This document shows, in pieces, positions 5,378 to 59,238 of a stretch of 64,000 nucleotides of DNA. Origin of the DNA: a virus; IMG/VR virus record IMGVR_UViG_3300046543_000266, positions 1 through 64,000 of that record; one strand, 5' to 3'. The notes under the pieces are model-generated. The model made no database searches and was not told where the DNA came from. It was given only the letters and a program-made list of their open reading frames with translations. The position numbers were made by a program, and so were the translations under genes. The stretch's first letter is position 1, and every line of letters starts with the position of its first letter.

Positions 5378-5387
5378 GTAGTAAATA
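5378..5387 (+). promoter_or_regulatory. Late-promoter-like GTAGTAAATA
   Basis: Exact copy of the recurrent motif. The expected start of transcription falls at the CTGATC box that opens the leader of the gene at 5432, 45 bases downstream. Confidence 0.6.
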
Positions 5388-5408
5388 CCCTGTAGCATCT
5401 GATCCTTA

Positions 5409-5425
5409 CTCCCAACGAAACGGAG
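5409..5425 (+). promoter_or_regulatory. Leader hairpin CTCC-N9-GGAG
   Basis: CTCC, loop CAACGAAAC, GGAG; identical loop at 31942, 32688 and 33379. Preceded by CTGATC. Confidence 0.65.
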
Positions 5426-5431
5426 CGCTTC

Positions 5432-5923
5432 ATGCAAATCTATCAACACCTGTCCCGCGATGACACCGCATCTGCCACGGTTCGTTTGAACCGCACCGAA
5501 ATGGCAGAACTGCGCAAGTTCATGCACACTCCCGAGTTTCACCAGTTCGTCGGCTTCCCCAACGGAGTCCGTCTGTATTATCGCAGCAAAGGCTGGTATC
5601 GCCTCGAAGCTACCCGCGACTACCGCGCTTGTGACAAGATCCGCGCAGCTCTGGCAATTCTGCGCAAATTCAAACGGGAGTTTCAGGCGTTGCTCGTAAC
5701 CGACATCCGCCGTCTGATCCTCGCGAAACACCCGGAGTTGCAGACCGTCGCCTATGTGGACGAATCCGACAACGCGCTGATCGGCACTTTCCATGTGCGC
5801 AACACGAAGGAGCCGCTGTCCACCGTCGCGCCTATGGAATCGCGGTTGCCTGTTGATTCCTCCAAGCTTGAGGAGTTGGCCGCAACCTTCGCCAAGTCCA
5901 ATCGAACCCGGCACCACGCATGA
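5432..5923 (+). CDS. Hypothetical protein
   Basis: 163 residues, not recognised. A basic helical middle (KIRAALAILRKFKREFQALL) and a C-terminal Ser/Thr-rich stretch. Preceded by both a late-type promoter motif and the RBS-masking leader. Its stop overlaps the next ATG. Confidence 0.8.
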   Translation: MQIYQHLSRDDTASATVRLNRTEMAELRKFMHTPEFHQFVGFPNGVRLYYRSKGWYRLEATRDYRACDKIRAALAILRKFKREFQALLVTDIRRLILAKHPELQTVAYVDESDNALIGTFHVRNTKEPLSTVAPMESRLPVDSSKLEELAATFAKSNRTRHHA

Positions 5924-6123
5924 ACGACACCGTATTCCACATCTTCCTGATCGTCTGGGGCGTGTATCACTTCTACACGGTATTCTGCTCGGTGTACAAC
6001 CAGGAAGTCCACAAAGATACGTCGCCGGTCGTAACCCGCTGGCGCTTTGTTGGCTACGTTCTTCTGGCAGAATACCTCGTCATCGTTGTGTGGGCGGCGT
6101 CGCTGCTCCACTTACAATTCTAA
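5920..6123 (+). CDS. Small two-span membrane protein
   Basis: 67 residues with hydrophobic segments at about 5-25 and 44-64 separated by a charged loop. ATGA overlap with the gene before it. No family recognised. Confidence 0.75.
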   Translation: MNDTVFHIFLIVWGVYHFYTVFCSVYNQEVHKDTSPVVTRWRFVGYVLLAEYLVIVVWAASLLHLQF

Positions 6124-6145
6124 CTTCATACCAAGGAACCACACC

Positions 6146-6475
6146 ATGTTCGCATTCAACAAGAAGGCCACCGAAATCCAAGCCGCCGTCGAATACTGCG
6201 CACCGCACTGGATCGTGGTGATCCGCAATCCGCGCGAGTCCAAGTGGACGCCGCTGCGATCGCTCACCAAGAAGGTGCGTGTGCAGGACGAGTTCGGCAA
6301 CGAGAAGTCCAGCCGTCCGGCGATCGAGAGCTTCGAATCCAAGCAGAAAGCCGATGTGTGGGTCAAGGAAAACATGCCTGGAGTCGCGCTGACGCAGCGT
6401 AGTTCGGTGGAGCGCAACAAGGATCACGAGTGGTTCGGTTCGTCGGGTCCTTCGATTAGCGGAGAAATGCAGTGA
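6146..6475 (+). CDS. Hypothetical protein
   Basis: 109 residues, basic, not recognised; contains AVEYCAPHWIVVIRNP and a charged C-terminus. AAGGAACC 6-12 bases before ATG 6146. Followed directly by a late-type motif. Confidence 0.75.
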   Translation: MFAFNKKATEIQAAVEYCAPHWIVVIRNPRESKWTPLRSLTKKVRVQDEFGNEKSSRPAIESFESKQKADVWVKENMPGVALTQRSSVERNKDHEWFGSSGPSISGEMQ

Positions 6476-6477
6476 TC

Positions 6478-6487
6478 GTAGTAAATA
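6478..6487 (+). promoter_or_regulatory. Late-promoter-like GTAGTAAATA
   Basis: Lies just after the stop at 6475 and 69 bases before ATG 6556. Its position argues against a GTG start at 6472 for the next gene. Confidence 0.6.
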
Positions 6488-6555
6488 GACTGGCAAGCAA
6501 CGTTTCCCCCGCCACCAATTACATACCTGCATCAATCCCCTTGGACAGCGCAACC

Positions 6556-6873
6556 ATGAAGAACCTCGTTCCTCCCATTGGTACGATGGTGCCCATCCGC
6601 TCCGGTGACGCGTCGTTGTCGAAAGACGACAAGACGTATATGTGCCGCATCACGTTCGACGAATCCACGAAGACTTGGATCATCGCGTCGCGGTTCAATC
6701 AAGCAACCGGCCGGTGGGCGCCGACTACCAAACACAAACGTCTGGGCTTCATCGTGTTCCTCAACGACAAGCCGGACACCGACGATACCCATGTGCGTAT
6801 CTCGGCAATCCAGCCTTCCGGGCAGGGAGCATACGGTGACAGCATCAAGCAATCCACGGCCAGTGAGTCGTGA
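6556..6873 (+). CDS. Hypothetical protein
   Basis: 105 residues, predominantly beta by inspection (KTWIIASRFN, LGFIVFLND). Not recognised. ATG 6556 is chosen because a promoter motif occupies the in-frame upstream segment that begins with GTG 6472. The 3-prime end overlaps the next gene by 11 bases. Confidence 0.7.
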   Translation: MKNLVPPIGTMVPIRSGDASLSKDDKTYMCRITFDESTKTWIIASRFNQATGRWAPTTKHKRLGFIVFLNDKPDTDDTHVRISAIQPSGQGAYGDSIKQSTASES

Positions 6874-7546: not shown

Positions 7547-7554
7547 GGACCATC

Positions 7555-9008: not shown

Positions 9009-9018
9009 GTAGTAAATA
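9009..9018 (+). promoter_or_regulatory. Late-promoter-like GTAGTAAATA
   Basis: First of two copies upstream of the gene at 9144. Confidence 0.55.
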
Positions 9019-9044: not shown

Positions 9045-9054
9045 GTAGTAAATA
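9045..9054 (+). promoter_or_regulatory. Late-promoter-like GTAGTAAATA
   Basis: Second copy, 90 bases before ATG 9144. The doubled motif suggests strong expression. Confidence 0.6.
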
Positions 9055-9143: not shown

Positions 9144-10052
9144 ATGGCAATCCGCAACGCAGCGAAGGGCACGAAGGCAGCAGCAGGTAAGGCTAAGGCA
9201 GCTCCGGCACGCAAGACGGCAGCTCCGGCTCGCGGTCGTGGTCGCGCAGCAGCTCCGGCTCCGGCGAAGCAAGGCCCGAAGGCTCGTGCAGCAGCGGCAG
9301 CAGCGAAGGCTGAAGCTCTGGCAGCGCGCAAGGCGAAGGCTCTGGCAGCGAAGAAGAAGGCAGCAGCTCCGAAGAAGCCGGTTCGTGGCGCGAAGGCCGC
9401 TCCGGTTCGTCAAGCTCGTGGCGCGAAGGCAGTGAAGGCAGTTGCTCAGCAAGCAGTCGGCACGCAAGTGTTCATCAAGATGGTCGTGACCACGCAAGCT
9501 GGCGGCAAGCCGACCGAAGCATCGTACTTCGGCGCACAAGGCCAGATCATCCCGCGTTCGACGGTCAAGGCAGTGGTCGGCAGCGTAATCTATCACGAAG
9601 TGCTGGTCCCGATGGGCACGGTCACCGAAGTGAAGGTGCAGAAGGGCATCACGATCTACATCACGGAAAACGGCCCGGTCATCGCGCTGGACCCGGCTTC
9701 GGTGTTCACCTCGTTCGGCGGCGCATCGGCAGTGATCGCCCCGGCTGGTGACGAAGACGAAGACGGCGTCGAAGGTGACGACGAAGAAGATGAAGACGAA
9801 GACGGCGTCGAAGGTGACGACGAGGACGAAGAGTCCGACGAAGAAGAAGACGAAGACGAAGAAGAAGACGAGGACGAAGAGTCAGACGACGGCGACGAAG
9901 AAGACGAAGAGTCGGACGACGGCGACGAAGAAGACGAAGACGAAGAAGAAGACGACGGCGACGAAGAAGACGAAGAAGAAGAAGACGACGGCGACGAAGA
10001 AGACGAAGACGACGGCGACGAAGAAGACGAAGACGAAGACGAACTGTTCTAA
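9144..10052 (+). CDS. H1-like basic tail plus long acidic tail protein
   Basis: 302 residues in three parts: residues 1-105 Ala/Lys-rich (histone-H1-like), 106-199 a compact beta-rich region (TQVFIKMVVTTQAGGK, then HEVLVPMGTVTEV), and 200-302 nearly all Asp/Glu with Gly spacers. Such a bipolar protein could bind DNA with one end and mask or compete with the other. Ahead are two late-type motifs; a strong terminator follows, so it is likely an abundant single-gene transcript. Function not known. Confidence 0.8.
   Translation: MAIRNAAKGTKAAAGKAKAAPARKTAAPARGRGRAAAPAPAKQGPKARAAAAAAKAEALAARKAKALAAKKKAAAPKKPVRGAKAAPVRQARGAKAVKAVAQQAVGTQVFIKMVVTTQAGGKPTEASYFGAQGQIIPRSTVKAVVGSVIYHEVLVPMGTVTEVKVQKGITIYITENGPVIALDPASVFTSFGGASAVIAPAGDEDEDGVEGDDEEDEDEDGVEGDDEDEESDEEEDEDEEEDEDEESDDGDEEDEESDDGDEEDEDEEEDDGDEEDEEEEDDGDEEDEDDGDEEDEDEDELF
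9745..10048 (+). repeat. Acidic-codon tandem repeat
   Basis: Imperfect repeats of GACGGCGACGAAGAAGACGA-type units encode the Asp/Glu tail. Prone to length variation. Confidence 0.8.
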
Positions 10053-11192: not shown

Positions 11193-13870
11193 TTATGGCT
11201 CTCGCCAAAAAGAAAGTCGCCGCTCCGACAAAGAAGGCGGCTTCGTATTCGAGCAAGGACATCACAACCTTGCGCTTCCCGGACAACGTCCGCTCGAACC
11301 CTTCGATGTATCTTGGGTCGGTGGACGCCGCTGGTGTGTGGCTCACGGCCCGGGAATTGCTGGACAACGCGCTGGATGAGCATCTGGCGCACCGTAACGA
11401 CGCAGTCATGCTGCACGTCGATAAGGACGGCTCCTATTGGGTGCTGGATCGTGGTCACGGCGTGCCGCAGGGTGTGAAGAAGTTCAGCGTGCACGTCAAC
11501 GGCAAGGACATCGAGACGAAGATGCCCACGATGCAAGCCGTCTTCGGTGAACTGCATACGTCGGGCAAGTATCGCTCGGATGCATACGCAACCTCGGTTG
11601 GTACGCACGGCATCGGCGCCAAGGGCACCAACGCAACCTCGGAGTTCTTCGAGGTCTTCACGTTCTACGAAGGCCAGTGGTTCACCATCGGCTTCAAGAA
11701 GGGCAAGCTGGTCAAGCACGTCGCGAAGTGCAGCGCCCCGAAGGGTCCCGACGGCAAGACTGTTACCAAGGGCACGGTCATCCACTTCAAGCCGGATCCC
11801 ACGATCTTCACCGTCAAGTCCTTCCCACCCTCGATGGTGATGGAATGGGCCGACGTGATGTCGCATCTGAATCCCGGCTTCGCAATCGTCGTATCCAGCC
11901 CCAAGGGCAAGAAGCAGTTCCTGTCGAAAATCGGCCCGGCCGGTTACGTCCAGCAGCGCATCGAGAAGTTGAAGACCGAAGCTGAACGCCTGATGTTCGA
12001 GTACAAGTCGGATCTGGCGGACGTCGTGGTGGCCTTCTCGAACTATGACGGCTGCGACGTGCGCGGTTTCACGAACGGCCTGAACAATGCTCAGGGCGGC
12101 AAACATCTGGACGCTGTGACCGGCGCACTGTACGCGGGCCTCAAGCCCTACATCAAAACCAAGCGCGTGGAAGGGAAGCCGGTTCCGGTGTTCCGCGAGG
12201 CTGACTTCAAGGAAGGCTTGGTTGGTCTTGTCAACGCCAAGCTCCACAAGGCCGAGTTCAGTTCGCAGGACAAGGCACGGCTGACTGATGCTCGTATGGG
12301 TGCGGCGTTCGAGAAAGAGCTCACGCTGGCAACCATCAAGTTCTTCAAGGACAACAAGGCACTGGCACTGCGTCTGTGTGCGCGGGCCACAAAGCTCAAC
12401 GAACTGAAGACCAAGTTCACGTTGTCGAAGAAGGCTGCGTCCACGCTCAACGCTATGAAGCGCAACGGTCTGCCCGCCAAGTACGCTGGATTCGACAGCA
12501 AGACGAAGACCGAAGACCGCGAACTGTTCATCGTCGAAGGGGATTCGGCAGGTGGTACGGTCAAGAAGGGTCGCTTCCCGTATCAGGCAGTGCTGCCCCT
12601 CAAGGGCAAGATCATGAACGCGTTGAAGGATGGCAAGGGCAAGACGCTGGAGTCGGAGGAAATCCTGAACATCCTGGCGGCTATCGGCTTCGACGTCAAG
12701 GCAGTCGACCCGTATGCCAAGCTCACGGTCGGCAAGATTGTGTGTCTGGCTGACCCGGATCCGGACGGCCCCTTCATCGGCGACACCCGCATCAACTTCC
12801 GCTACAATACGCACGGCACGACGCAGTCGGCCAGCATCGAGTGCCTCGCCAAGATGGCAGCTGATGGTACGGAGTTCGTGGTTCCGGTGTGGAACGGCCA
12901 AACCGAAGTGTGGGCCAGCGCCAGCGCTCGCCTCGAACGCAACGTCGAGCAACTGGTTGCTCTCGAGATCGGCAAGACGAAGTACAAGGTCAGCGTCGAT
13001 CACAAGTGGCTGTGTGTTAAAACCGATGCGCTGCGCGGCCGCGACGTGGGCGAACATGCAGACAACCTCGTGTTCGTCAGGGCGGCTGATCTGAAGGTAG
13101 GCGACCGGGTGTTCATGCCCGCAGCTAACAACACGCGGGACAAGTCTAGCTGCGACTACGCGACGAAGCTCGGGTTCGCCCCAGTCTCGAAGATGCGCAT
13201 CCAGCAGTTGGACCAGCCGGTTCCGGTGTACTGTCTGAGCGTGCCGAAGTATCACCACTTCATGCTGCCTTCGGGTATCGTGTCGAGCAACTGCCACATC
13301 AACTCGTTGCTGCTCACGCTGTTCTACCGCTATCTGCCTGAGCTGTTCAGCCGGGGCATGGTGTTCGTTGCCAACAGCCCGGAGTTCTACAGCATCCACA
13401 AGAATCAGCTGGTGACCGGCGAGTCGCTGTCGGCAATGGGCAAGAACCTGAAGCGCATCAAGGCACCGGCCAACACGCCGATCCATCACATCAAGGGTTG
13501 GGGAGAAATCGATGCTCCGCTGATGCGCATCTTGGCAATGGACCCGGCCACGCGGAAGCTCATCAAGATTGGCGCAATCGAGCACGACGACAAGGTTGAC
13601 TTCGAGCGGCTCATGAACGACGACGTTGCCTATCGCCGTGACATGTTGGGCTTGCCGTCCAATGCCGTCGGCGGTGACGTGGAGGAGGAAGGCACTCCGA
13701 AGTCCAAGGCCGCACGTAAAGTACCTGTGAACAAAGCGGTCGTCGCAGCCAAGAAAATTGCGACAGCCAACCGGAAGATCGTTCACCGTCGCGATGAAAT
13801 CGAAGCCAAGCGCATCGAGAAGCGACGTGGCCTCCGTCCGGTGGGCAAGACGTTGCGCAAAGCCGCATAA
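11189..13870 (+). CDS. Type II DNA topoisomerase large (ATPase/TOPRIM) subunit with intein
   Basis: 893 residues including a 174-residue intein. GyrB/ParE/T4-gp39 family: GHKL ATPase with ELLDNALDE (56-64), DRGHG (87-91) and GTHGIGAKG (138-146); TOPRIM with EGDSAGG (450-456) and DPDPDG (522-527), metal-binding residues for DNA cleavage; IKGWGEI replaces the usual YKGLGEM. The intein splits DPDPDG from CHINSLLL. Basic Lys/Ala tails are added at both ends. Works with the subunit at 13880 to relax DNA ahead of replication forks. Splicing is needed for an intact TOPRIM domain. Confidence 0.93.
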   Translation: MIMALAKKKVAAPTKKAASYSSKDITTLRFPDNVRSNPSMYLGSVDAAGVWLTARELLDNALDEHLAHRNDAVMLHVDKDGSYWVLDRGHGVPQGVKKFSVHVNGKDIETKMPTMQAVFGELHTSGKYRSDAYATSVGTHGIGAKGTNATSEFFEVFTFYEGQWFTIGFKKGKLVKHVAKCSAPKGPDGKTVTKGTVIHFKPDPTIFTVKSFPPSMVMEWADVMSHLNPGFAIVVSSPKGKKQFLSKIGPAGYVQQRIEKLKTEAERLMFEYKSDLADVVVAFSNYDGCDVRGFTNGLNNAQGGKHLDAVTGALYAGLKPYIKTKRVEGKPVPVFREADFKEGLVGLVNAKLHKAEFSSQDKARLTDARMGAAFEKELTLATIKFFKDNKALALRLCARATKLNELKTKFTLSKKAASTLNAMKRNGLPAKYAGFDSKTKTEDRELFIVEGDSAGGTVKKGRFPYQAVLPLKGKIMNALKDGKGKTLESEEILNILAAIGFDVKAVDPYAKLTVGKIVCLADPDPDGPFIGDTRINFRYNTHGTTQSASIECLAKMAADGTEFVVPVWNGQTEVWASASARLERNVEQLVALEIGKTKYKVSVDHKWLCVKTDALRGRDVGEHADNLVFVRAADLKVGDRVFMPAANNTRDKSSCDYATKLGFAPVSKMRIQQLDQPVPVYCLSVPKYHHFMLPSGIVSSNCHINSLLLTLFYRYLPELFSRGMVFVANSPEFYSIHKNQLVTGESLSAMGKNLKRIKAPANTPIHHIKGWGEIDAPLMRILAMDPATRKLIKIGAIEHDDKVDFERLMNDDVAYRRDMLGLPSNAVGGDVEEEGTPKSKAARKVPVNKAVVAAKKIATANRKIVHRRDEIEAKRIEKRRGLRPVGKTLRKAA
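12770..13291 (+). other. Mini-intein in topoisomerase large subunit
   Basis: In-frame, residues 528-701 (174 aa, no homing endonuclease domain). Block A is PFIGDTRINF (usual CxxGDTxI), block B KVSVDHKWLCV (TxxH-type), block F VYCLSVPKYHHFM and block G GIVSSN followed by Cys702. It starts with Pro instead of Cys/Ser and has Ser instead of the usual penultimate His; the Asn701/Cys+1 pair is intact. Removing it joins DPDPDG to CHINSLLL, the expected TOPRIM sequence. Confidence 0.88.
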
Positions 13871-13879
13871 GGAATCGAC

Positions 13880-15463
13880 ATGGTAATCAAAAGACGAGTA
13901 GCGAAGCCCGAAGCCGACGATATGGACTTCGACAAACCCGCACCGCGCACACGGGCTCCGGCCCGTCGTGGCAAAGCGCCGGTCAAGCGGGTTCTGAAGG
14001 GTACTGAGGACAAGCACGTCGATAACGAAAGCATCCGTAGCTTCGGCAAGCGCAACATGACCACGTATGCTGTGGCGGTCAACCTCGATCGCAGCGTGCC
14101 TGACATGTACGACGGGTGGAAGCCTGTGCATCGCCGCATCATCTGGGCGGCTTCCACTCAGGCTCGCGACCTAACCAAGACGGCGCGGGTCGTGGGCGAT
14201 ACGCTTGGCAAGTATCACCCCCACGGTGACCGCAGCGTGGCCGACGCCATCGAGACGATGGTCAACATGCCTACTGCTCCGCTTTTGGGCAAGGGCAATT
14301 GGGGATCGATGATCGACAGCGCGGCAGCCATGCGATACACCAACATGAAGCTGTCGGCGTATGGCCTCACGTTCCTGAACCCGCACTACATCCACTCGGA
14401 AGTCACGTCGTTCGTACCCAACTACGACGACAAGGACGTGGAGCCGGTCACGCTTCCGGCGCAGTTGCCGAACGTGCTGATCAACGGCTCCGAGGGTATC
14501 GGCGTTGGCATTACCACTGGCTTGCCGTCGTTCACGCCTGAGTCGATGATCAGTGTGCTGGAGAGCATGCTCAAGGGTGAGAAGCTGAAGGCCGTCGACT
14601 TCGCGAAGCGCCTGAAGTTCGCTCACAAGTGGGGCGGGCAGATCGTCCAGTCGAAGGAGAACCGCTTATCAATGATGGGCATCTTCAACGGCAGCGTCGG
14701 CACTGTACAGTTCGAGTCGGCCATCGAAGTGGATCGTGACCGCAAGAGCATGACCATCGGCGACTGGCCTCCAGGCACTAACCTCGAGAAGTTCGTGGCG
14801 CGTGTCCGGGCCATGCCTGAATGTCAGCGCTGCTATAACAGCGAAGGCGTCACCAACTTCACGATCGAGTGCAAGCCCGCCTACAACTATGTGCAGTTCG
14901 ACAAGTTCGTTGAGAAGGTTCAGGCGGCGACTCGGCAGAAGCGCAACTACAAGATCAACGTAACGCAGCGTGTCGCCAACGATAACGACGGCGTCATTAG
15001 CTTCGAGACCAAGTTCTTGGCGCTGTCGGTGCCTGAGCTGATCTTGCAGTGGTTGCGTATGCGCCTCCAGTTGGAACTGAAAAGTCTGACGTTCCGGATC
15101 AAGAAGCAGGAAGCAGCCATCGCCTACTCCGAGCTCCTGATCTACGCGTGCGACAAACTGGATCTGATCTTCAAGGCGATTCGTAGCAGCGACCCGAAAG
15201 CCGCGATGGTAAAGCTGCTGAAGATCACCGAGGAGCAAGCCAAGCAAATCCTGGAGTTGCGCTTGTCACAACTCACGCGCATGGATCAAAGCGCGATGAA
15301 GGAAAAGCTGGCCGAGCAACGCAGTCATCACAAGCAACTGCTCGTGTGGCAGAAGAAGCCTCGCAGCAAGGTGCTTCTCGATCTCGAAGATGTCCGAGCC
15401 GCAATCGACAAGGACCGGAAGTTCGAAAACACCAAGGAAGAGCAGTCGCTTACGGTGGTGTAA
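13880..15463 (+). CDS. Type II DNA topoisomerase medium (cleavage) subunit
   Basis: 527 residues, GyrA/ParC/T4-gp52 family. DGWKPVHRRI, GDTLGKYHPHGD (~107-118) and AMRYTNMKLS with catalytic Tyr153 form the winged-helix cleavage centre. The GyrA C-terminal beta-pinwheel is missing, as in T4 gp52, so it should relax rather than supercoil. The N-terminus carries a basic Arg/Lys/Ala/Pro tail (residues 1-45). Begins 9 bases after the large subunit; clearly an operon. Confidence 0.93.
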   Translation: MVIKRRVAKPEADDMDFDKPAPRTRAPARRGKAPVKRVLKGTEDKHVDNESIRSFGKRNMTTYAVAVNLDRSVPDMYDGWKPVHRRIIWAASTQARDLTKTARVVGDTLGKYHPHGDRSVADAIETMVNMPTAPLLGKGNWGSMIDSAAAMRYTNMKLSAYGLTFLNPHYIHSEVTSFVPNYDDKDVEPVTLPAQLPNVLINGSEGIGVGITTGLPSFTPESMISVLESMLKGEKLKAVDFAKRLKFAHKWGGQIVQSKENRLSMMGIFNGSVGTVQFESAIEVDRDRKSMTIGDWPPGTNLEKFVARVRAMPECQRCYNSEGVTNFTIECKPAYNYVQFDKFVEKVQAATRQKRNYKINVTQRVANDNDGVISFETKFLALSVPELILQWLRMRLQLELKSLTFRIKKQEAAIAYSELLIYACDKLDLIFKAIRSSDPKAAMVKLLKITEEQAKQILELRLSQLTRMDQSAMKEKLAEQRSHHKQLLVWQKKPRSKVLLDLEDVRAAIDKDRKFENTKEEQSLTVV

Positions 15464-16116: not shown

Positions 16117-17397
16117 ATGGCTAAGGCACAAATCGCAGCATCCTCCAAGTCCAACGCAGCAGCAGCCAAGAAGGCGACGGCGAAGAAAGCATTCGCAGCC
16201 AAGAAGGTAGCGCCGAAGGCAAAAGTCGGCGCATCGGCCCGCAGTGGTAACGCAAAGCGTGGTGCCGAGCAGCGCGTCAAGGTAAGCCAGGATGCTGTGA
16301 AGGCATTCGCGTTCCCGACTCGCAAGTCGATGAAAGCGCTCGCCAAGACTCTGACTGTCGGCACTGTGGTTGGTGAAAAGGGTGGTCAGGAGCGCGTCGG
16401 TATGGTCCACGCTGTACCGGGAAGCGGCTCCACGATCCCGACAGGCACGGTCGGCGTCATCTGGGACGAGGGCAAAGGCGTGGAAGTCTACGCGGTCGGA
16501 ATGCTGGAAGTCGTGAAGAACCCGAGCAAGCTCCTGAAGGCGGATATCGGCACCGCCATCGAACAGAACCGCGAGTACGCGAAGCTCGCCAAGAAGTACA
16601 CACTCGGTGCCGAAGTGCAAGAGCTTCAGGAACCCAAGCGTCACGGCATCGTGCAAGCGGTCGCGGCGAAAGGCAGTGGTTACGTGACTGTGCAGTTCGG
16701 TATCGCAGTCGAGGCCAAGCATGTAGGCGACCTCAAGCTGTTGGGCCAGCATCAAGCGCTTCTGGCCCCGACGACTTCGGCTCCGGTTGTCCACACCGCA
16801 TGGGAAGTCGGCACCCGCGTTGAGCATCCGACACACGGATTGGGTGTCGTGGCTATCAGCGCAGAAGGTATGCCCGACGACGTCGCCACCGTCCACTTCG
16901 ATGACGGTGATCAAGTGGCGAAGGAAATCGCAGCCAGCGAACTGAAAGTGATCAACGATACGTTTGCAGTTGGCGAGATCGTCGAGCACGCGGAACACGG
17001 TATGGGTCGCATCGAGACGCTGCATCCCAACGCCACTACCGCAGCGGTTCGTTTCCTGGACGCTGACGTGGTTGTTACGCGCAAGCTCAGCGAATTGCAT
17101 TCGCTCAAGGACGCAGAGATCACCATCGAGCGCGCCGCCGATGCCGCAGTCACGCCGGTCTCGAAGGTCAAGCGCGTCCGCTTCGATGAGCTCGGGCTGT
17201 TCGAAGCGTTCGTCCACGAAGACCGCACGCATGTCAAGGTCGGCAACACTAGCGCGCTCCGCGTTGTCGTCGCCGGAATCACGAGCGAGCCGTTCGCAAT
17301 GCTGGCAACCCAGGAATCGAAACTGGTGAAGGATGCCAAGGTGCGCTTCCGTCTGAAAGACAAGGTCGCCCGTTACGCAGTTCACGCCGCGCAGTAA
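16117..17397 (+). CDS. H1-like tail fused to four SH3/Tudor-like repeats
   Basis: 426 residues. Residues 1-55 are a Lys/Ala H1-like tail. Then four similar beta-barrel units at about 79-133, 161-209, 229-279 and 283-330, each opening like LTVGTVV, YTLGAEV, WEVGTRVEHPTHGLG or FAVGEIVEHAEHGMG. The third and fourth resemble the CarD/UvrD-C Tudor pattern (GxxVxHxxxGxG), domains that bind RNA polymerase. A role in transcription or DNA packing is inference. Its stop codon lies inside a late-type motif. Confidence 0.7.
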   Translation: MAKAQIAASSKSNAAAAKKATAKKAFAAKKVAPKAKVGASARSGNAKRGAEQRVKVSQDAVKAFAFPTRKSMKALAKTLTVGTVVGEKGGQERVGMVHAVPGSGSTIPTGTVGVIWDEGKGVEVYAVGMLEVVKNPSKLLKADIGTAIEQNREYAKLAKKYTLGAEVQELQEPKRHGIVQAVAAKGSGYVTVQFGIAVEAKHVGDLKLLGQHQALLAPTTSAPVVHTAWEVGTRVEHPTHGLGVVAISAEGMPDDVATVHFDDGDQVAKEIAASELKVINDTFAVGEIVEHAEHGMGRIETLHPNATTAAVRFLDADVVVTRKLSELHSLKDAEITIERAADAAVTPVSKVKRVRFDELGLFEAFVHEDRTHVKVGNTSALRVVVAGITSEPFAMLATQESKLVKDAKVRFRLKDKVARYAVHAAQ

Positions 17398-17400
17398 ATA
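17391..17400 (+). promoter_or_regulatory. Late-promoter-like GCAGTAAATA
   Basis: One mismatch to the motif; includes the stop codon of the preceding gene. 149 bases before ATG 17549. Confidence 0.45.
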
Positions 17401-17465: not shown

Positions 17466-17475
17466 GTAGTAAATA
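17466..17475 (+). promoter_or_regulatory. Late-promoter-like GTAGTAAATA
   Basis: 74 bases before ATG 17549; downstream AACGGTGTGCC resembles AACGGTGTAGC after the site at 59228. Confidence 0.6.
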
Positions 17476-17548: not shown

Positions 17549-18034
17549 ATGGCAACGCAAATCAACGCAGTTCAAGCAGCTCGCTCGGTCGCACAAACGG
17601 TCGCTCAACTCACGCGCAAAGTTGCACAGCAAGAAAAGCTGATCGCTCGTCTGCAAGCGAAGGGCAACGGCGCGGCGAAGCCGGTTCGTGCAGCAAAGGG
17701 TCCGAAGGCTGCTCCGGCTGCGAAGAAGGCTGGCAAGATCGTGCGCGAAGCGCGTGAAGGTCGCGGCGCAGCGAAGAACGTGAAGGTCAACGCGAAGGCG
17801 GCTGGTCGTGCTGGCAAGGCATCGGCAGAAGACGACGAAGACGCTCCGGTTGCGAAGCGCGTGAAGGTCGCTGGCAAGGCTGGTCGCGTGGTGAAGGGTC
17901 CGAAGGCTGTCGCAGGCAAGCAAGGTCCGGTCGCGAAGAAGCAAGCAGCGGGCAAGGGTCCGAAGGCTGCTCCGGCGAAGGCTGGCAAGCCGGTCAAGGC
18001 TGCGAAGAAGGGCGGCGACGACTTCCTGCTGTAA
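17549..18034 (+). CDS. Histone-H1-like basic protein
   Basis: 161 residues. Residues 1-40 form a coiled coil with Gln/Leu heptads (ARSVAQTVAQLTRKVAQQEK); the rest is Ala/Lys/Gly/Pro repeats (KGPKAAPA) as in H1 or bacterial AlgP/HctB-like proteins, ending DDFLL. Likely binds DNA without sequence preference. Two late-type motifs precede and a terminator follows, fitting high expression. Confidence 0.75.
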   Translation: MATQINAVQAARSVAQTVAQLTRKVAQQEKLIARLQAKGNGAAKPVRAAKGPKAAPAAKKAGKIVREAREGRGAAKNVKVNAKAAGRAGKASAEDDEDAPVAKRVKVAGKAGRVVKGPKAVAGKQGPVAKKQAAGKGPKAAPAKAGKPVKAAKKGGDDFLL

Positions 18035-19786: not shown

Positions 19787-19796
19787 CTAGTAAATA
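19787..19796 (+). promoter_or_regulatory. Late-promoter-like CTAGTAAATA
   Basis: One mismatch at the first base. 104 bases before ATG 19900. Confidence 0.5.
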
Positions 19797-23934: not shown

Positions 23935-25692
23935 ATGAAAAAGACGACCATCGCAATCGCAATCCTGTCCTCGTTCGCAGCTCCGGCATTCGCAACGCAG
24001 TACGTGGCCTACGACACGGTTCCGGGCAGTCACGGCCAGTCGGAAGTGGACTACGGCAACGTCACGATGCAGGGTACGAACGGCACGAAGATCCACAACG
24101 TCGCGGCGGGTACGTCAGGCACGGATGCAGTCAATGTCAACCAGCTGAACAGCGCAATCGCTACGGTCAAGACCCAGAAGGGCGATACCGGCGCGACGGG
24201 TGCCACAGGTGCTCAAGGGGTCGCGGGTAAGGACGGCAAGAACGGCATCGATGGTAAGAACGGCATCGATGGTAAGAACGGCATCGATGGAGCAGCGGGT
24301 GCGACCGGCGCTCAAGGCGTCGCAGGTAAGGATGGTGCGAAGGGCGACACTGGCGCACAGGGTATCCAGGGTGTGAAAGGCGATAAGGGTGAGAAGGGCA
24401 ACACTGGCGCTTCTGTTGCTGGCGTGTCTATCAACGGCACGACTGTGACGACAACGCTCGACAACGGTTCGCAGGTGAACGGCACTATCACGGGTCTGGC
24501 TACGACGGAGCAGTTGAACCAGACGAACGTCAACGCCAGCGCTCTGGGTTCGAAGGTGGACCAAGCTACCACGACGGCGAATCAAGCCAAGTCCATCGCA
24601 CAAGGGGCAGACGCCAAGTCGAACACGGCAATCGGCATCGCCGCCGGAGCAGCTATCACCGCGACCGGTGCAGCCATCGTCAGCGGCATCGCCTACGAGA
24701 AGGCTGACAATGCTCAGCAAGTCGCTGGTCAGGCCAACGCCACGTCCAACCAAGCGAAGAACATCGCTCAAGGTGCGGCGTACCAAGCCAGTCACGCAGA
24801 CCAAGTCGCGGCTGAAGCCAACACGACGGCAGGTAAGGCAACCGTCACAGCACAGGCAGCAGATGCGAAGTCGGACATCGCACTGGCAACCGGCGTGAAG
24901 AACAGCGGTGACATCAACAAGCTGAACGCGGGCTTGGCGACTACCAACTCGCATGTCGCGCAGAACACGGCAGACATAGCGGCCAATCAGCAAGCCATCC
25001 GCTCGGAAGCTGGCCGTGCTCAAGACGCTGAGTGGAAGCTGGGATCAGCGATCACGTCGGAAACGTCGCGCGCAACGGCTGCCGAGCAGGGCATCCAGTC
25101 GCAAGTGACGGGCAACACGAAGAGCATCAACAATCTCAACGCACGCCAAGCCAACACCGAAGCGTGGATCGGAAATGCGAACGCGGGAGCCATCGGTCAA
25201 GGCTCGCAAGTGAAGGCGAACAACGCAGTTGCACTCGGTGCTGGCTCCGTGGCAGATCGTGACAATACCGTGTCCGTAGGCGCTGCTGGTCAGGAGCGTC
25301 AGGTCACCAACGTCGCAGCCGGTACGCAAGCAACCGACGCGGTGAACGTGTCGCAGCTGAACAGCTACATGCGTCAGACAGCAAAGGCGGTGGACAACTC
25401 GAATGCCTACACGGATCAGCGAGTCAACGCTCTGCAGTCGTCGTTCGATAGCTTCAAGAAGGATACCTACGGCGGCATCGCAACGGCGCTGGCAATTGCA
25501 GGACTGCCGCAGCCGACGGCTCCGGGTCGTTCGATGGTGTCGGTGGCGGGTTCCACGTATCACGGGGCAACCGGTCTGGCCGCTGGCTACTCGCAGGTAA
25601 CGCAAGACGAGCGTTGGGTGATGAAGGCGTCGGTTACCACGAGCAACCGTGGCGACTTCGGTGCTGTGCTCGGCGCTGGTCGTCAATTCTGA
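23935..25692 (+). CDS. YadA-type trimeric autotransporter adhesin
   Basis: 585 residues. Signal peptide 1-20 (MKKTTIAIAIL...APAFA), neck motif GTDAVNVNQLNS (~62-74), collagen-like Gly-X-Y stretch (~82-160), a long helical stalk, a YadA head-like repeat (NAVALGAGSVADRDNTVSVG), a second neck TDAVNVSQLN (~465-475), then an outer-membrane anchor of four strands (residues ~510-585) ending in Phe. All parts for Sec export and outer-membrane display are present, so it should decorate the infected cell rather than the virion. Such a gene in a phage is a bacterial-type acquisition. Confidence 0.88.
   Translation: MKKTTIAIAILSSFAAPAFATQYVAYDTVPGSHGQSEVDYGNVTMQGTNGTKIHNVAAGTSGTDAVNVNQLNSAIATVKTQKGDTGATGATGAQGVAGKDGKNGIDGKNGIDGKNGIDGAAGATGAQGVAGKDGAKGDTGAQGIQGVKGDKGEKGNTGASVAGVSINGTTVTTTLDNGSQVNGTITGLATTEQLNQTNVNASALGSKVDQATTTANQAKSIAQGADAKSNTAIGIAAGAAITATGAAIVSGIAYEKADNAQQVAGQANATSNQAKNIAQGAAYQASHADQVAAEANTTAGKATVTAQAADAKSDIALATGVKNSGDINKLNAGLATTNSHVAQNTADIAANQQAIRSEAGRAQDAEWKLGSAITSETSRATAAEQGIQSQVTGNTKSINNLNARQANTEAWIGNANAGAIGQGSQVKANNAVALGAGSVADRDNTVSVGAAGQERQVTNVAAGTQATDAVNVSQLNSYMRQTAKAVDNSNAYTDQRVNALQSSFDSFKKDTYGGIATALAIAGLPQPTAPGRSMVSVAGSTYHGATGLAAGYSQVTQDERWVMKASVTTSNRGDFGAVLGAGRQF
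24238..24290 (+). repeat. Tandem 18-bp repeat encoding KNGIDG
   Basis: Three near-identical copies of GATGGTAAGAACGGCATC in the collagen-like stalk; likely to vary in number by slippage. Confidence 0.85.
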
Positions 25693-25695: not shown

Positions 25696-25705
25696 GTAGT
25701 AAATA
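25696..25705 (+). promoter_or_regulatory. Late-promoter-like GTAGTAAATA
   Basis: Four bases after the adhesin stop codon and just ahead of the terminator; 91 bases before ATG 25796. Confidence 0.5.
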
Positions 25706-28190: not shown

Positions 28191-28526
28191 ATGAAAACAA
28201 TCTATCGTGCCGACGACGGCAAAGAATTCGACACCGCTCTCGACTGCCATAGATACGAGCGCAGCATGTCCATTGGTTCTGACGCCCGCTTCGTCGACAA
28301 GCTGGCGGTCATTCTGCAGCCGGTTATCGCTTCCGACGATCGAGGCAACGACGTCATCCATGCAAGTACTGATGACACGGATGAGTACAGTCTGACGGAA
28401 ATGGCGATCTACCTTGCGGATCATCTCGACGAGCTGGTTGAACTGCGAGACCAGATAGCGCACGAGCGCATGAAGCCGAAGAATCCCGGGTACAAGGTCA
28501 AGCCCAAGTCGAACCGTAGTAAATAA
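28191..28526 (+). CDS. Hypothetical protein
   Basis: 111 residues. The opening YRADDGKEFDTALDCHRYE resembles YSAPDGKVFPSEQQAQRHA in the protein at 46544, a short phage unit in which a DGKxF strand is followed by a helix. Basic C-terminus. A late-type motif covers its stop codon. Confidence 0.75.
   Translation: MKTIYRADDGKEFDTALDCHRYERSMSIGSDARFVDKLAVILQPVIASDDRGNDVIHASTDDTDEYSLTEMAIYLADHLDELVELRDQIAHERMKPKNPGYKVKPKSNRSK
28516..28525 (+). promoter_or_regulatory. Late-promoter-like GTAGTAAATA
   Basis: Overlaps the stop of the preceding gene; 48 bases before ATG 28573. Confidence 0.6.
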
Positions 28527-31403: not shown

Positions 31404-31460
31404 AACCGCGTTGTTTTTACGCAACACGGGCCTTCGGAGGGCATGGTATAATAAAGTGCG
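31404..31460 (+). promoter_or_regulatory. Promoter: GTTG...CAAC (31410-31425) plus TATAAT (31447-31452)
   Basis: CAAC begins 25 bases before TATAAT, as at 15530 and 49999. Context TGGTATAATAAAGTGCGGG is nearly the same as at 39062. Confidence 0.7.
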
Positions 31461-39009: not shown

Positions 39010-39075
39010 TCGGTGTTGTTTTGACGCAACACGCCCGCTAGGAGGCTATGTTAGGGCGTGGTATAATAAGGTGCG
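39010..39075 (+). promoter_or_regulatory. Promoter: GTTG...CAAC (39015-39030) plus TATAAT (39062-39067)
   Basis: Here CAAC begins 35 bases before TATAAT, exactly 10 bases (about one helical turn) more than at 31447, 49999 and 15530. TGGTATAATAAGGTGCGGG otherwise matches 31447. Confidence 0.7.
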
Positions 39076-40846: not shown

Positions 40847-41053
40847 ATGGGCAAGCAGCTTTACGATAAGCCTATGACCAACATCGCGTGCCGCCTGAGT
40901 GACGAGGACATCGAGTTGTTCCGCGAGCTTGGTGGCGGCAGCTACTCGTTGGGCATCCGTCGAGCAGCACGCATGATCCGTGAGAACCGCCTGTCTATGA
41001 GCGCCGCCGTTCCCAGGCGCGATCTAGATTGGGTTGAAGTAAATAAGTCATAA
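40847..41053 (+). CDS. Small protein, possible ribbon-helix-helix
   Basis: 68 residues. IACRLSDEDIELFRELGGGS then YSLGIRRAARMI could be strand-helix-turn-helix as in CopG/Arc-type DNA-binding proteins. Modest evidence. Its stop lies in a late-type motif. Confidence 0.6.
   Translation: MGKQLYDKPMTNIACRLSDEDIELFRELGGGSYSLGIRRAARMIRENRLSMSAAVPRRDLDWVEVNKS
41036..41045 (+). promoter_or_regulatory. Late-promoter-like GAAGTAAATA
   Basis: One mismatch; overlaps the preceding coding end, 30 bases before ATG 41075. Confidence 0.4.
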
Positions 41054-41331: not shown

Positions 41332-43263
41332 ATGAATACCAATCAAGATCTCGTATCGTTGAAGCGACAGTACAAACGGGCGGTGGTCGCGTACTACAAC
41401 GCAGACAAGCCCATCATGACAGACGCCGCCTTCGACAAGCTGGAGGACCAGATCCGCAAGGCTGATCCGTCGTGGAAGGAACTGGCTAACACTGGCGTCA
41501 AGGTTGCGGACAAGAAGACCGAGGCACCGTTGGTCGAGTTCATGCCTAGTCTCAACAAGATGTACCCGGAAGCGGTCAGCAAGTTCTACGCTCGCCCCGC
41601 GTCGGCCAAGGTCGGCGCATGGCTATGGATGGACAAGCTGGATGGGACCAGCCTCCAGCTAGTGTACAAGAACGGTCGCCCCTTCAAGCTTATCACGCGT
41701 GGCGACGGCACTCTTGGTGGTGACATCAGCTTCTTCCTGCCTACCTTGGTGAAGCTCAAGCGTATCCCGGCCCAGATCCCCACCAACGGACAGGTGGTGT
41801 TCCGCATCGAGGGTCTGATGTCAGTCAAGACGTTCGCGAAGAAGTGGTCGCGAGGCGTCCGGGGTAAGCTCGGGTTCGACAACATCCGCAACATGGTGAA
41901 CGGCCTCTTCAACAAGAAGGACATGCATCCGGCGCTGGTTGATGTGGACTTGGTGGTGTTGGGAGTGTACGACATGACCATGTACAAAGGTCTGCAGACG
42001 GCAGCCCAATGGGGATTCAACGTCGTGCATTATCAAGTAGTGAAGGGTCACAAGGATTCAGAGAAGGGTCACAAGGACGCAGAAGCGCACGGCAAAGCGT
42101 TGGAGGATCGTCGTGCCGCCAGCATTTACGAGATGGATGGTCTGGTGATTGCTCCGATGATGTTCGAGTTGTCCTATCCCAACGCGGACAAGCCCAAGGC
42201 ACTGATCGCCTTCAAGTTCAACGACGAGGAAAATGCGCAGCAGGTCGTGGTAGAGGACATCATCTGGCAAAAGACGCGGCTCAAGCGCTGGATACCGAAG
42301 ATCAACATCAAGCCCACCAAGATGGACGGCGTCATGGTTTCGAATGCGGCCGCCCACAACGCTGAGTGGATGAAGGAGAAGGGTATCGGGCCGGGAGCTA
42401 TCGTCAAGGTTCTGCGCAGTGGTGGCGTCATCCCGAAGATTGTGGGCGTCGTCAAGAAGGCTGCATTCAAGGAACCGCCTGGACCGTATGAAGTTCAGGG
42501 CGTCCACTTCGTCATGGCCGAGCACGACAAGGCAACCGAAGTACGTGGCATCCACTTCTTCATGACCACGCTTGGCGTCGAGCTCCTGGCCTCGAAGACC
42601 ATCAGCTTGCTGTATGACCACGGCTTCACGACGCCTGAATCCTATATCAAGCTGGCCCACGCATCGGACAAGATCATCAAGCATACGCTGGCTCCCGCAG
42701 AGTTGGGTCCAAAGCAAAGCGCCAAGATCATCGCTGAGCTGAAGCGCGTGCTGTGCAACACGGTGTCGCTGCGTCTGCTGATGGTGGCGTCGGGTGCCTT
42801 CGAGAAGGGTGGCATGGGTAAGCGCAAGCTGGAGCAGCTGGAGGACGCTGGTATCGCAATGGCCCGCTTGTGCAACATGAAGAGCCCTGAGCTTATCAGC
42901 ACGGTGGAAAACATCAAGGGCTTCAGCAGCAAGACTGCCACGATTCTGAATGACGGCGTGAAGGTGTTCCGTGAATGGTATCGTCCGCTGAAGGGCGTGC
43001 TCACCGTGGACGGCGCGTTACCTAAGAAGGCGAAGCCAGTCGCTGGTGGCAAGCTGTCTGGTATCAACGTGGCCTGGACTTCGTACCGGGACAAGGATCA
43101 GGAAGCGAAGGTTGTGGCCCTCGGCGGTGCCGTGGTTCCGTACGGTGCCAAGATGACGGTCCTGCTGTACAAGGAAGGAGCCAAGTTCGCAGCCAAGATC
43201 GAGAAGGCTGGCGACAAGGCCATGACGTGGGAAACGTTCACCAACAATTATGGAGTCAAGTAA
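41332..43263 (+). CDS. ligA: NAD-dependent DNA ligase
   Basis: 643 residues. Domain Ia (YYNADKPIMTDAAFDKLEDQ, 21-40), nucleotidyltransferase with KLDG (adenylated Lys102) and EMDGLVI, OB fold (VLRSGGVIPKIV), HhH region (GMGKRKLEQL, IKGFSSKTA) and a BRCT-like end. The four-Cys zinc finger of bacterial LigA is absent: its place has HFVMAEHDKATEVRGIHFFM with no Cys. A short insert KGHKDSEKGHKDAE is a direct repeat. Seals nicks with NAD. Stop overlaps the next ATG. Confidence 0.93.
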   Translation: MNTNQDLVSLKRQYKRAVVAYYNADKPIMTDAAFDKLEDQIRKADPSWKELANTGVKVADKKTEAPLVEFMPSLNKMYPEAVSKFYARPASAKVGAWLWMDKLDGTSLQLVYKNGRPFKLITRGDGTLGGDISFFLPTLVKLKRIPAQIPTNGQVVFRIEGLMSVKTFAKKWSRGVRGKLGFDNIRNMVNGLFNKKDMHPALVDVDLVVLGVYDMTMYKGLQTAAQWGFNVVHYQVVKGHKDSEKGHKDAEAHGKALEDRRAASIYEMDGLVIAPMMFELSYPNADKPKALIAFKFNDEENAQQVVVEDIIWQKTRLKRWIPKINIKPTKMDGVMVSNAAAHNAEWMKEKGIGPGAIVKVLRSGGVIPKIVGVVKKAAFKEPPGPYEVQGVHFVMAEHDKATEVRGIHFFMTTLGVELLASKTISLLYDHGFTTPESYIKLAHASDKIIKHTLAPAELGPKQSAKIIAELKRVLCNTVSLRLLMVASGAFEKGGMGKRKLEQLEDAGIAMARLCNMKSPELISTVENIKGFSSKTATILNDGVKVFREWYRPLKGVLTVDGALPKKAKPVAGGKLSGINVAWTSYRDKDQEAKVVALGGAVVPYGAKMTVLLYKEGAKFAAKIEKAGDKAMTWETFTNNYGVK

Positions 43264-49931: not shown

Positions 49932-49957
49932 AAAAGGGAGCCTCTGTGGCTCCTTTT
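49932..49957 (+). terminator. Rho-independent terminator
   Basis: AAAAGGGAGCC pairs with GGCTCCTTTT with one bulge. Directly followed by the next promoter. Confidence 0.75.
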
Positions 49958-49959
49958 AC

Positions 49960-50010
49960 GCGTTGTTTTTACGCAACACTGCCGGTTGCCCCGTATGTTA
50001 TAATAAGGTG
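49960..50010 (+). promoter_or_regulatory. Promoter: GTTG...CAAC (49962-49977) plus TATAAT (49999-50004)
   Basis: CAAC begins 25 bases before TATAAT. The CGTTGTTTTTACGCAACAC element is identical to that at 31409-31427. Confidence 0.7.
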
Positions 50011-55172: not shown

Positions 55173-55175
55173 GCC

Positions 55176-55607: not shown

Positions 55608-55617
55608 CACGTAAATA
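55607..55617 (+). promoter_or_regulatory. Late-promoter-like CACGTAAATA
   Basis: Core GTAAATA conserved, TA before it lost. 39 bases before ATG 55656. Confidence 0.4.
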
Positions 55618-56054: not shown

Positions 56055-56058
56055 ACTT

Positions 56059-57218: not shown

Positions 57219-57220
57219 CT

Positions 57221-57583
57221 ATGAATCAAATCAACAGCTTGTCTGATAGCTACGTGGATGCGTGGCTCGCCTATTGTCTGGACTACTCCAACATCGGGGT
57301 GGTCAACGGTCGTTTGTACGCATGTGATCCGATTCAAGGGTCGTGGCAACCGGTTGACTTTCACACCGAGAATGTTGGAACCGAGCTGATCGATACACAA
57401 CCTGTATCGATCGAGCCGCACTGGAAAGAAGGGGTTCACATTGGCTGGCGCGCACACTGTCGCAACGGAATGTTCAGCGGAGCTGGTGTGTCTCATCGTC
57501 AGGCTGCGCTACGCTGCATACTTGCCACGCTGATGAACAGTCGCGACGTACCGTCCGACCTTCCGCCAGCCAAACGCAAGTAA
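57221..57583 (+). CDS. Possible distant DUF2591 relative
   Basis: 120 residues. Order of blocks (DAWLAYCLDYSN, EGVHIGWRAHCRNGMFSG, AALRCILATLMNSRDVPSDL) mirrors the DUF2591 protein at 30257, but identity is low. GAAGGTG before ATG 57221. Confidence 0.6.
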   Translation: MNQINSLSDSYVDAWLAYCLDYSNIGVVNGRLYACDPIQGSWQPVDFHTENVGTELIDTQPVSIEPHWKEGVHIGWRAHCRNGMFSGAGVSHRQAALRCILATLMNSRDVPSDLPPAKRK

Positions 57584-57654
57584 TCACGCCGCCCTGAGCC
57601 TCGCGTTTCAACCACGTCCAATCATTAACAAACTTAAACGGATAGAGTACCAAA

Positions 57655-57906
57655 ATGGCTAAGCTCGTGAAAGTATCACCGACCAAAGCGTATCGTATCG
57701 AAGCGATCCAGATCGATGACAATCAGATGATCTCCATCCGCCAGATGTACGCCACCAAGAAGGACCCGAAGTTGAAGCCGGGGCGTCAGGGCCTCACCAT
57801 TCCGCTTGAACAAGCCGAGCGGGTTGCCAAGTGGATCAAGCAATTGGCGACCGACCCGAACACTGAATTCACCGTGCTCGAAGCACGTGGAGGTAGCGAC
57901 GAATGA
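57655..57906 (+). CDS. PC4-like (p15) candidate ssDNA-binding protein
   Basis: 83 residues. MISIRQMYATKKDPKLKPGR then QGLTIPLEQAERVAKWIKQL fits the PC4/p15 pattern: beta strands with (I/V)xIRxxY, a basic PGxKG turn and one C-terminal helix. PC4 relatives bind ssDNA and affect transcription or replication. Pattern match only. Confidence 0.58.
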   Translation: MAKLVKVSPTKAYRIEAIQIDDNQMISIRQMYATKKDPKLKPGRQGLTIPLEQAERVAKWIKQLATDPNTEFTVLEARGGSDE

Positions 57907-58082
57907 AAGTCCAACGCGTAGTTTGGGATCAAGGAATGCCGCAAGAGTCGGTGCAGTACATTGACACTGCGACTGGTAAGACCGTGCAACCGCCGCAGCG
58001 GCCGCGGATCGAAGGCTTCAACGGCCAGACGTGGGACCGCGGTATGCCCCAAGAAACGTTTGAACGGTGGGACGACAAATGA
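57903..58082 (+). CDS. Small protein with WDxGMPQE repeat
   Basis: 59 residues. WDQGMPQESVQY (8-19) and WDRGMPQETFERW (44-56) are two copies of a short unit. Not recognised. ATGA overlaps on both sides. Confidence 0.68.
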   Translation: MKVQRVVWDQGMPQESVQYIDTATGKTVQPPQRPRIEGFNGQTWDRGMPQETFERWDDK

Positions 58083-58378
58083 GTGAAGCCCAAGTGCCCA
58101 CGCCAACACCCCACCAATCCGAGTCAGTCTTCGGCTGTCTTGGTACAGTGTATCGCAGCACCTACACTGGATGCGAAGGCTGGAACAGCACCAAGATTGG
58201 CACCGTATCCGTGTACGGTGCGTTGCCTCAGCTTGCGAAGTTGAAGGCCGACAAAGAGGCTGCGTATCCGCCCGGTCCCGCGTTCATGCGTACCACGATC
58301 AAGTGGGGTGACCCGGTTGCGCTGCATGACTTGTCGGACATTTGGAAGTTCCTTCACGGTGACGTTGTTACTCACTAG
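58079..58378 (+). CDS. Hypothetical protein
   Basis: 99 residues, Pro/Thr-rich start, not recognised. Confidence 0.7.
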   Translation: MSEAQVPTPTPHQSESVFGCLGTVYRSTYTGCEGWNSTKIGTVSVYGALPQLAKLKADKEAAYPPGPAFMRTTIKWGDPVALHDLSDIWKFLHGDVVTH

Positions 58379-58387
58379 GAGTTGGTC

Positions 58388-58672
58388 ATGTCGCGGGAAC
58401 AAGAACACCGAATTCAGATTACCGTCAGTCCCAGCAAGTCGCCGAAGGATTATCCAGTGGTTCGCACCTTCCGCATCCCGAACGTTGGGGTCAGGACTGA
58501 CGTTTCAGCATACGTAGTGTTAGACGGCAATCAGTATCGCTTGGTAGTGGGTCGCGGCAATGGGCGACTGGGGTTCGCCGAACCTGAAGAGATCTACCAG
58601 TTGCTCCGTGAGCTAGTCTCCTACATCGATGAATTGACCTACACTCTTCTCCTCCTACACAAAACGCCATGA
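58388..58672 (+). CDS. Hypothetical protein
   Basis: 94 residues, beta-rich with a helical end. AGGAG before ATG 58388. Not recognised. Confidence 0.72.
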   Translation: MSREQEHRIQITVSPSKSPKDYPVVRTFRIPNVGVRTDVSAYVVLDGNQYRLVVGRGNGRLGFAEPEEIYQLLRELVSYIDELTYTLLLLHKTP

Positions 58673-58986
58673 ACTACAACGACTACGACGACATTCCCGA
58701 TTTCCCACCGTCCCCGTACATTGACCGGATGGCTCAAGCTAAGGGTCGAACCTCCGTTCAACCGGCGTCCGCTCCGGTGCCGGTGACCTTCGACGAAGTT
58801 CGTATGGAAGTCCGTATCGCCCGCTACCTGTCGTCACAGTCGGTTCAGCTGGAAGTCGCCCATCACTTCTACTATCAGGGGGTACGGGTGGTGAAGGGCC
58901 GGTGGACGTTTCTAGTAGTGAGCGATCAAACCGCCAACCACTTAATCATGCACGGAATCTCAGGCAGCGTCCAGTGCAGGGAATAG
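58669..58986 (+). CDS. Hypothetical protein
   Basis: 105 residues, acidic Pro-rich start, then alpha/beta. ATGA overlap upstream. Not recognised. Confidence 0.72.
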   Translation: MNYNDYDDIPDFPPSPYIDRMAQAKGRTSVQPASAPVPVTFDEVRMEVRIARYLSSQSVQLEVAHHFYYQGVRVVKGRWTFLVVSDQTANHLIMHGISGSVQCRE

Positions 58987-58998
58987 AGGAATATTCTT

Positions 58999-59238
58999 AT
59001 GGAACTTCTGGTTCTCTACTCGCAGATCAATTCTTCAACTGGCGAACCTGTCCAGCGCCGGAGGCTCGTCAATACGTTGAGCAGGTTCATGTCGGACATG
59101 GATGCGAAGGGTCGTGACTACGAACTCATCGATGCGTACCCGGTGACCGACACGGCGGCTGAGGGACTTCGATGGGACATCGACGCTGAGAACGAGGCGC
59201 AGCGAACAAAAGCAAAGTCTGGGAAGGCTAGTAAATAA
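58999..59238 (+). CDS. Hypothetical protein
   Basis: 79 residues, alpha/beta; a late-type motif covers its stop. Not recognised. Confidence 0.7.
   Translation: MELLVLYSQINSSTGEPVQRRRLVNTLSRFMSDMDAKGRDYELIDAYPVTDTAAEGLRWDIDAENEAQRTKAKSGKASK
59228..59237 (+). promoter_or_regulatory. Late-promoter-like CTAGTAAATA
   Basis: 54 bases before ATG 59291; downstream AACGGTGTAGC resembles the site at 17466. Confidence 0.55.

What the first reader, a model, noticed from the sequence alone, without database searches (positions are those of the whole stretch)
5378..59237. Recurrent TAGTAAATA motif as a T4-late-like promoter
Copies at 5378, 6478, 9009, 9045, 17391, 17466, 19787, 25696, 28516, 41036, 55607 and 59228, all + strand, between genes or over stop codons, 30-150 bp ahead of a start codon, with no shared -35 box. 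T4 late promoters have TATAAATA alone. Likely class of genes: the H1-like proteins, MazG and unknown genes.
Basis: partly seen in the sequence, partly recalled or inferred. Interest (0 to 1): 0.8.

Follow-up and report, generated by a model that had tools for sequence, protein, structure and literature searches.

The report
Single-box promoter motif of giant phages
A short DNA word, AGTAAATA, sits in front of many genes of this giant bacterial virus and its relatives and very probably marks where transcription starts with the help of a virus-made sigma factor; it resembles the late start signal of phage T4, but it mostly precedes DNA-replication genes and not virus-particle genes.

Summary
TAGTAAATA occurs 9 times in the window, all on +, with 0.04 expected; the other three listed sites are variants. 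AGTAAATA is the most over-represented 8-mer upstream of genes: 22 seen, 0.22 expected. In about 190 kb of this 217.6-kb phage record, [AC]GTAAATA is 40:0 in the gene-sense direction. No -35 box is shared.

It is conserved. In 18 related sigma-gene loci GTAAATA is 62:2 sense:antisense, and 16 of 18 have a copy within 1 kb downstream of the sigma gene, 0.8 expected. Lu11's record annotates CTGTAAAT words as 'putative middle/late promoter'. The phage encodes a sigma factor (phrog_17569) modelled as sigma70 region 1.2 plus domain 2, with no recognisable domains 3-4, which fits a -10-only promoter.

'T4 late' is only an analogy. The sigma factor shows no sequence kinship to gp55. Replication genes carry the motif; the tail-fibre block has none and the head/tail block only copies inside genes. 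A second motif, AATTTNAY, lies at virion genes and ahead of the sigma operon. Timing and the sigma-motif pairing are inferred.

The parts
5379..5387 (+). TAGTAAATA promoter-like site, 45 nt before the gene at 5432
   Evidence: exact match; distance
6479..6487 (+). TAGTAAATA site, 3 nt past the stop of the gene ending at 6475
9010..9018 (+). TAGTAAATA site, first of a tandem pair ahead of the H1-like gene 9144-10052
9046..9054 (+). TAGTAAATA site, second of the tandem pair, 90 nt before 9144
17392..17400 (+). CAGTAAATA variant site; its TAA is the stop codon of gene 16117-17397
17467..17475 (+). TAGTAAATA site, 74 nt before the H1-like gene 17549-18034
19788..19796 (+). TAGTAAATA site, about 100 nt before the ORF starting at 19900
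25697..25705 (+). TAGTAAATA site just after the YadA-like gene 23935-25692
28517..28525 (+). TAGTAAATA site over the stop of gene 28191-28526, 48 nt before 28573
41037..41045 (+). AAGTAAATA variant site ahead of 41075/41114 and of the DNA ligase gene 41332-43263
55609..55617 (+). ACGTAAATA variant site, 39 nt before 55656
59229..59237 (+). TAGTAAATA site, 54 nt before the MazG-like gene 59291-60139
797..805 (+). TGGTATAAT extended -10, early-type promoter-like site (contrast class)
5051..5059 (+). TGGTATAAT extended -10, early-type site
31444..31452 (+). TGGTATAAT extended -10, early-type site
39059..39067 (+). TGGTATAAT extended -10, early-type site
49996..50004 (+). TGTTATAAT extended -10, early-type site
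60205..60214 (+). GCAATTTTAC, the second promoter-like motif, 37 nt before the topoisomerase IB gene 60242

Best explanation
[A/C]GTAAATA is a single-element (-10-only) promoter of this phage and of the Sarumanvirus/RSL1/Motura/Lu11-type jumbo phages. Shown: over-representation, coupling of strand to gene direction, absence of a -35 box, positional conservation in relatives, and a phage-encoded sigma factor modelled as sigma70 region 1.2 plus domain 2. Inferred: this sigma factor (genome position 170468-171439, - strand, outside the window) loads onto host RNA polymerase core, opens DNA at GTAAATA without a -35 contact, and starts RNA about 6-8 nt downstream. Also inferred: the class follows host-sigma70 early promoters and serves mainly replication, nucleotide and unknown genes (a middle class), while virion genes and the sigma operon use a second motif, AATTTNAY.
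For: 9 exact copies, all +, 0.04 expected. AGTAAATA 22 vs 0.22 upstream of genes, 1 antisense, 1 in coding sense. 40:0 gene-sense. Strand follows gene blocks genome-wide. No -35 box. Opposite-facing copies head both arms of the divergent pair at 211.1/211.5 kb. Related loci: GTAAATA 62:2, and TGTAAATA 37:5 in the Lu11-like clade; 16 of 18 loci have a copy just downstream of sigma, 0.8 expected. Lu11 record labels its copies putative middle/late promoters. Sigma factor: phrog_17569, E 1.3e-76; model pLDDT 85; superposes on sigma70 residues 96-448, Z 11-15.
Against: No transcription start has been mapped. The sigma-motif pairing rests on co-occurrence and fold; base differences between clades follow whole-genome descent as well. 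PaBG has the sigma but few GTAAATA. A second motif (AATTTNAY) also competes for the same sigma factor. Gene starts come from a simple caller. A strand-biased motif could in principle act in RNA.
Confidence: 0.8

Rival explanations
1. It is a true T4-type late promoter: a gp55-like factor with co-activator and sliding clamp drives virion genes from it.
For: Shared TAAATA core, no -35 box, sigma with no recognisable domains 3-4. T4-related Aeh1 also varies at -13/-12 (PMC2988020). A clamp-loader gene is present.
Against: TATAAATA absent. No sequence kinship to gp55. Virion blocks lack usable copies while replication genes have them. No clamp found with PF02768.
Confidence: 0.1
2. It is an RNA or translation element: a stop-codon context or mRNA processing site whose strand bias merely follows transcription.
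For: Sense-strand only, often over stop codons, and contains TAG TAA.
Against: Stop codons occur in several registers and many sites lie tens of bases beyond any stop. The motif heads both arms of a divergent gene pair. It resembles a -10 element and was independently labelled promoter in Lu11.
Confidence: 0.06
3. The phage sigma factor reads AATTTNAY, and GTAAATA is read by host polymerase with another phage protein (for example a CarD-like one).
For: AATTTNAY lies ahead of the sigma operon in 15 of 18 loci and is strand-biased 20:2. A weak CarD/TRCF RID match exists at 16117-17397.
Against: AATTTNAY shows no strand bias in the Lu11-like clade (17:14), although that clade has the same sigma family; GTAAATA is kept in both clades.
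Confidence: 0.15

Closest known systems
'Putative middle/late promoter' features in the GenBank record of Pseudomonas phage Lu11 (JQ768459)
   Same: GTAAAT core, upstream of genes, related phage-encoded sigma factor.
   Different: Lu11 uses AAAACTGTAAATA, here TAGTAAATA or CGTAAATA. The label is a prediction by its annotators; no experiment was found.
Burkholderia phages BcepSaruman/BcepSauron, Ralstonia phage RSL1, Achromobacter phage Motura
   Same: Same core (TAGTAAATA in Saruman, AAATCGTAAATA in Motura); homologous sigma factor (62% and 49% identity); in Saruman, Sauron and the RSL1-sized record a copy follows the sigma gene.
   Different: The motif is not annotated in the stretches read and no description was found in the papers searched. 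Flanking bases differ. The identification of record L053 with RSL1 rests on its length (231,255 bases) and my own knowledge.
Phage T4 late promoters (TATAAATA, gp55/gp33/gp45)
   Same: -10-like single element, TAAATA core, no -35, a sigma2-type phage factor (PMC2988020, PMC7892883).
   Different: [A/C]G in place of TA at the first two positions; factor unrelated to gp55 by sequence; gene set is replication-like; clamp dependence unknown.

Membership tests
T4-type late promoters | TATAAATA consensus at -10 | tested here: not met
   0 copies of TATAAATA in the window; core is [A/C]GTAAATA. Aeh1 shows that -13/-12 can vary among T4 relatives.
T4-type late promoters | No conserved -35 element | tested here: met
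   40 aligned sites, no upstream column above 0.3 bits.
T4-type late promoters | Recognised by a gp55-family factor | tested here: inconclusive
   Sigma family profile against a 15-member gp55 profile: probability 0.7%. Both are sigma2-type factors; gp55 chains were not among the listed structure matches, which excludes nothing.
T4-type late promoters | Activation by sliding clamp and co-activator | not testable with these tools
   Needs biochemistry. A clamp loader is encoded; no clamp was found with PF02768.
T4-type late promoters | Serves virion (late) genes | tested here: not met
   Tail-fibre block 0 copies; portal/tail/baseplate block only 3, inside genes. Replication genes carry it.
Lu11-type GTAAAT promoters (predicted class) | Strand-coupled GTAAATA upstream of genes together with a phrog_17569-type sigma factor | tested here: met
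   The base before GTAAATA differs (A/C here, T in Lu11).
phrog_17569 RNA polymerase sigma factor | Profile match over the full length | tested here: met
   E 1.3e-76, residues 19-322.
Minimal sigma factor (domain 2 only) | Sigma domain 2 present, domains 3 and 4 absent | tested here: inconclusive
   Domain 2 and region 1.2 seen by fold. Only about 70 residues follow and no domain 3/4 was recognised; absence of a match is not proof.

The most novel reading that the evidence does not exclude
These jumbo phages run a three-tier programme on host RNA polymerase: host-sigma70 extended -10 early promoters, then two different single-box promoter classes. NGTAAATA, read by a sigma2-only phage factor, serves replication; AATTTNAY serves virion genes and the sigma operon and is read by an unidentified factor. 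A T4-late-like promoter type would then have been deployed for the replication stage.
Probability: 0.35. Interest if true: 0.62.

Novelty: new variant of a known kind. Interest (0 to 1): 0.5.

Why it matters
It gives a little-studied branch of jumbo phages (RSL1, Sarumanvirus, Motura, Lu11 and metagenomic kin) a predicted promoter code and a candidate reader. It offers a second phage family, apart from T4 gp55, in which promoters may be recognised by a minimal sigma factor without a -35 contact. One start-site mapping experiment and one in vitro transcription assay would test it directly.

Tried and rejected
Tandem-stop-codon reading (TAG TAA): rejected because stop registers vary. A shared -35 or other upstream element: none. 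Nucleotide kinship to known phages: no megablast match. Kinship to T4 gp55 by sequence: none with one gp55 or a 15-member profile; gp55 did not appear in the structure lists, which is not evidence of absence. Sequence match of the sigma to solved structures: nothing useful. A gp55-like clamp-binding tail: sigma C-termini of near relatives often end like L..F.LE beside gp55's LDFLYE, but this is not kept in the Lu11 clade, so it is not claimed. A beta clamp in this genome by PF02768: not found. PF20225 was a wrong guess of mine. No Rfam family or tRNA in the window. Paper searches for the motif gave no phage promoter description among the listed papers; most subscription papers are not held. 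A first attempt to hand in this report was malformed.

Full report
Observation. TAGTAAATA occurs nine times in the 64-kb window, always on the + strand, where dinucleotide shuffles give 0.04. TATAAATA does not occur. The window is part of a 217,605-base virus record. TAAATA lies on + from 0 to 74 kb, on - from 94 to 211 kb and on + again to the end, which follows gene orientation where I called genes. In about 190 kb that I read, [AC]GTAAATA is 40:0 in the gene-sense direction of its block. An unbiased k-mer count upstream of genes puts AGTAAATA first: 22 against 0.22 expected, one antisense, one in coding sense. Forty aligned sites show no -35 box and only weak preferences next to the core. 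Gene starts come from a simple caller written here and are approximate.

Conservation. The nearest named phages are BcepSauron/BcepSaruman, then Motura, Lu11, PaBG and the P. putida Pori-4 group. GTAAATA exceeds its reversed control in Saruman, Sauron, Motura, Pori-4 and Y3, not in PaBG. Each lineage has its own flanks: TAGTAAATA in Saruman, AAATCGTAAATA in Motura, AAAACTGTAAATA in Lu11, TGTAAA[CT] in PaBG. The Lu11 record labels its copies 'putative middle/late promoter'. In 18 loci around related sigma genes from IMG/VR, GTAAATA is 62 sense to 2 antisense; in 12 loci of the more distant Lu11-like clade TGTAAATA is 37:5 while AGTAAATA is 2:5. In 16 of the 18 nearer loci a copy lies within 1 kb downstream of the sigma gene, that is ahead of the SSB gene where annotated; 0.8 were expected and none is antisense.

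Candidate reader. Genome position 170468-171439 (-) encodes a 323-residue protein of phrog_17569, 'RNA polymerase sigma factor', E 1.3e-76, next to SSB, UvsX and TerL as in Saruman and PaBG. The Pfam sigma region 2 match is weak. The AlphaFold2 model has mean pLDDT 85. Residues 5-250 superpose on sigma70 residues 96-448, the part with region 1.2, the non-conserved region and domain 2; the listed rows are sigma chains of RNA polymerase complexes or sigma70 fragments, Z 11-15. About 70 residues follow, too few for the usual domains 3 and 4, which fits a promoter without a -35 box. That this factor reads this motif is inference.

Comparison with T4. T4 late promoters have a -10-like box with no -35 element, read by gp55 (PMC2988020, PMC7892883), and Aeh1 has a/gC in place of TA at -13/-12. 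Here [A/C]G stands at the same two positions. In architecture it works like that type. It is not filed as a member: the consensus differs, the sigma family has no detectable sequence kinship to gp55, and the gene set differs. Genes behind the motif include DNA polymerase, SSB, UvsX, SbcC, thymidylate synthase and a phosphohydrolase. The tail-fibre block at 117.6-141.7 kb has no copy, and the three in the portal/tail/baseplate block are inside genes; for the one at 148459 this needed a reading of the frames.

Second and third classes. An expectation-maximisation search gave another motif, AATTTNA[CT], often near virion genes (66449, 116507, 128204, 131837, 140574, 163830). It is 20:2 sense:antisense in the 18 nearer loci and lies within 1 kb upstream of the sigma gene in 15 of 18, 2.2 expected (pattern slightly wider there). 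TGGTATAAT or TGTTATAAT extended -10 sites on + at 797, 5051, 31444, 39059 and 49996 look like host-sigma70 early promoters. The motif of this finding therefore looks like a middle class. Timing is untested.

Judgement. I call it a new variant of a known kind.

Noticed in passing
60205 + in the window; genome 66449, 116507, 128204, 131837, 140574, 163830, 171928: A second strand-biased motif, AATTTNA[CT], near virion genes and ahead of the sigma operon; probably another single-box promoter class with an unknown reader.
   Followed up: partly
31415-31452, 49954-50004; genome 74068-74095: GTTGTTTTTACGCAACA, a small inverted repeat, about 30-40 nt upstream of TATAAT-type extended -10 sites; possibly an early-promoter control element.
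   Followed up: no
genome 173506-174600 and 174672-175676 (L019): Thymidylate synthase family gene next to a 5-hmdU DNA kinase family gene (PF18723); the phage may carry hypermodified thymine, which could affect how a T-rich promoter is read.
   Followed up: no
16117-17397 +: Protein after GyrA with a weak CarD/TRCF RNA-polymerase-interacting-domain match (E 1.6e-4, below cut-off); C-terminal part 30% identical to BcepSaruman gp168 at the same place.
   Followed up: partly
before 5432, 31960, 32340, 32707 and 33398 +: Nearly identical leader CCCAACGAAACGGAG directly before several start codons.
   Followed up: no
23885, 52536, 59263 + and elsewhere in the genome: ACCCTTCCCA recurs in leaders of genes of several modules (motif 2); role unknown.
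   Followed up: no
9144-10052 and 17549-18034 +: Histone-H1-like Ala/Lys-rich proteins, each behind a motif site.
   Followed up: partly
23935-25692 +: A collagen-repeat protein with YadA stalk and membrane anchor, a trimeric-autotransporter layout that is unusual in a phage.
   Followed up: no
11195-15463 and 60242-61945 +: The phage encodes both a GyrB/GyrA-type topoisomerase and a eukaryotic-type topoisomerase IB.
   Followed up: no
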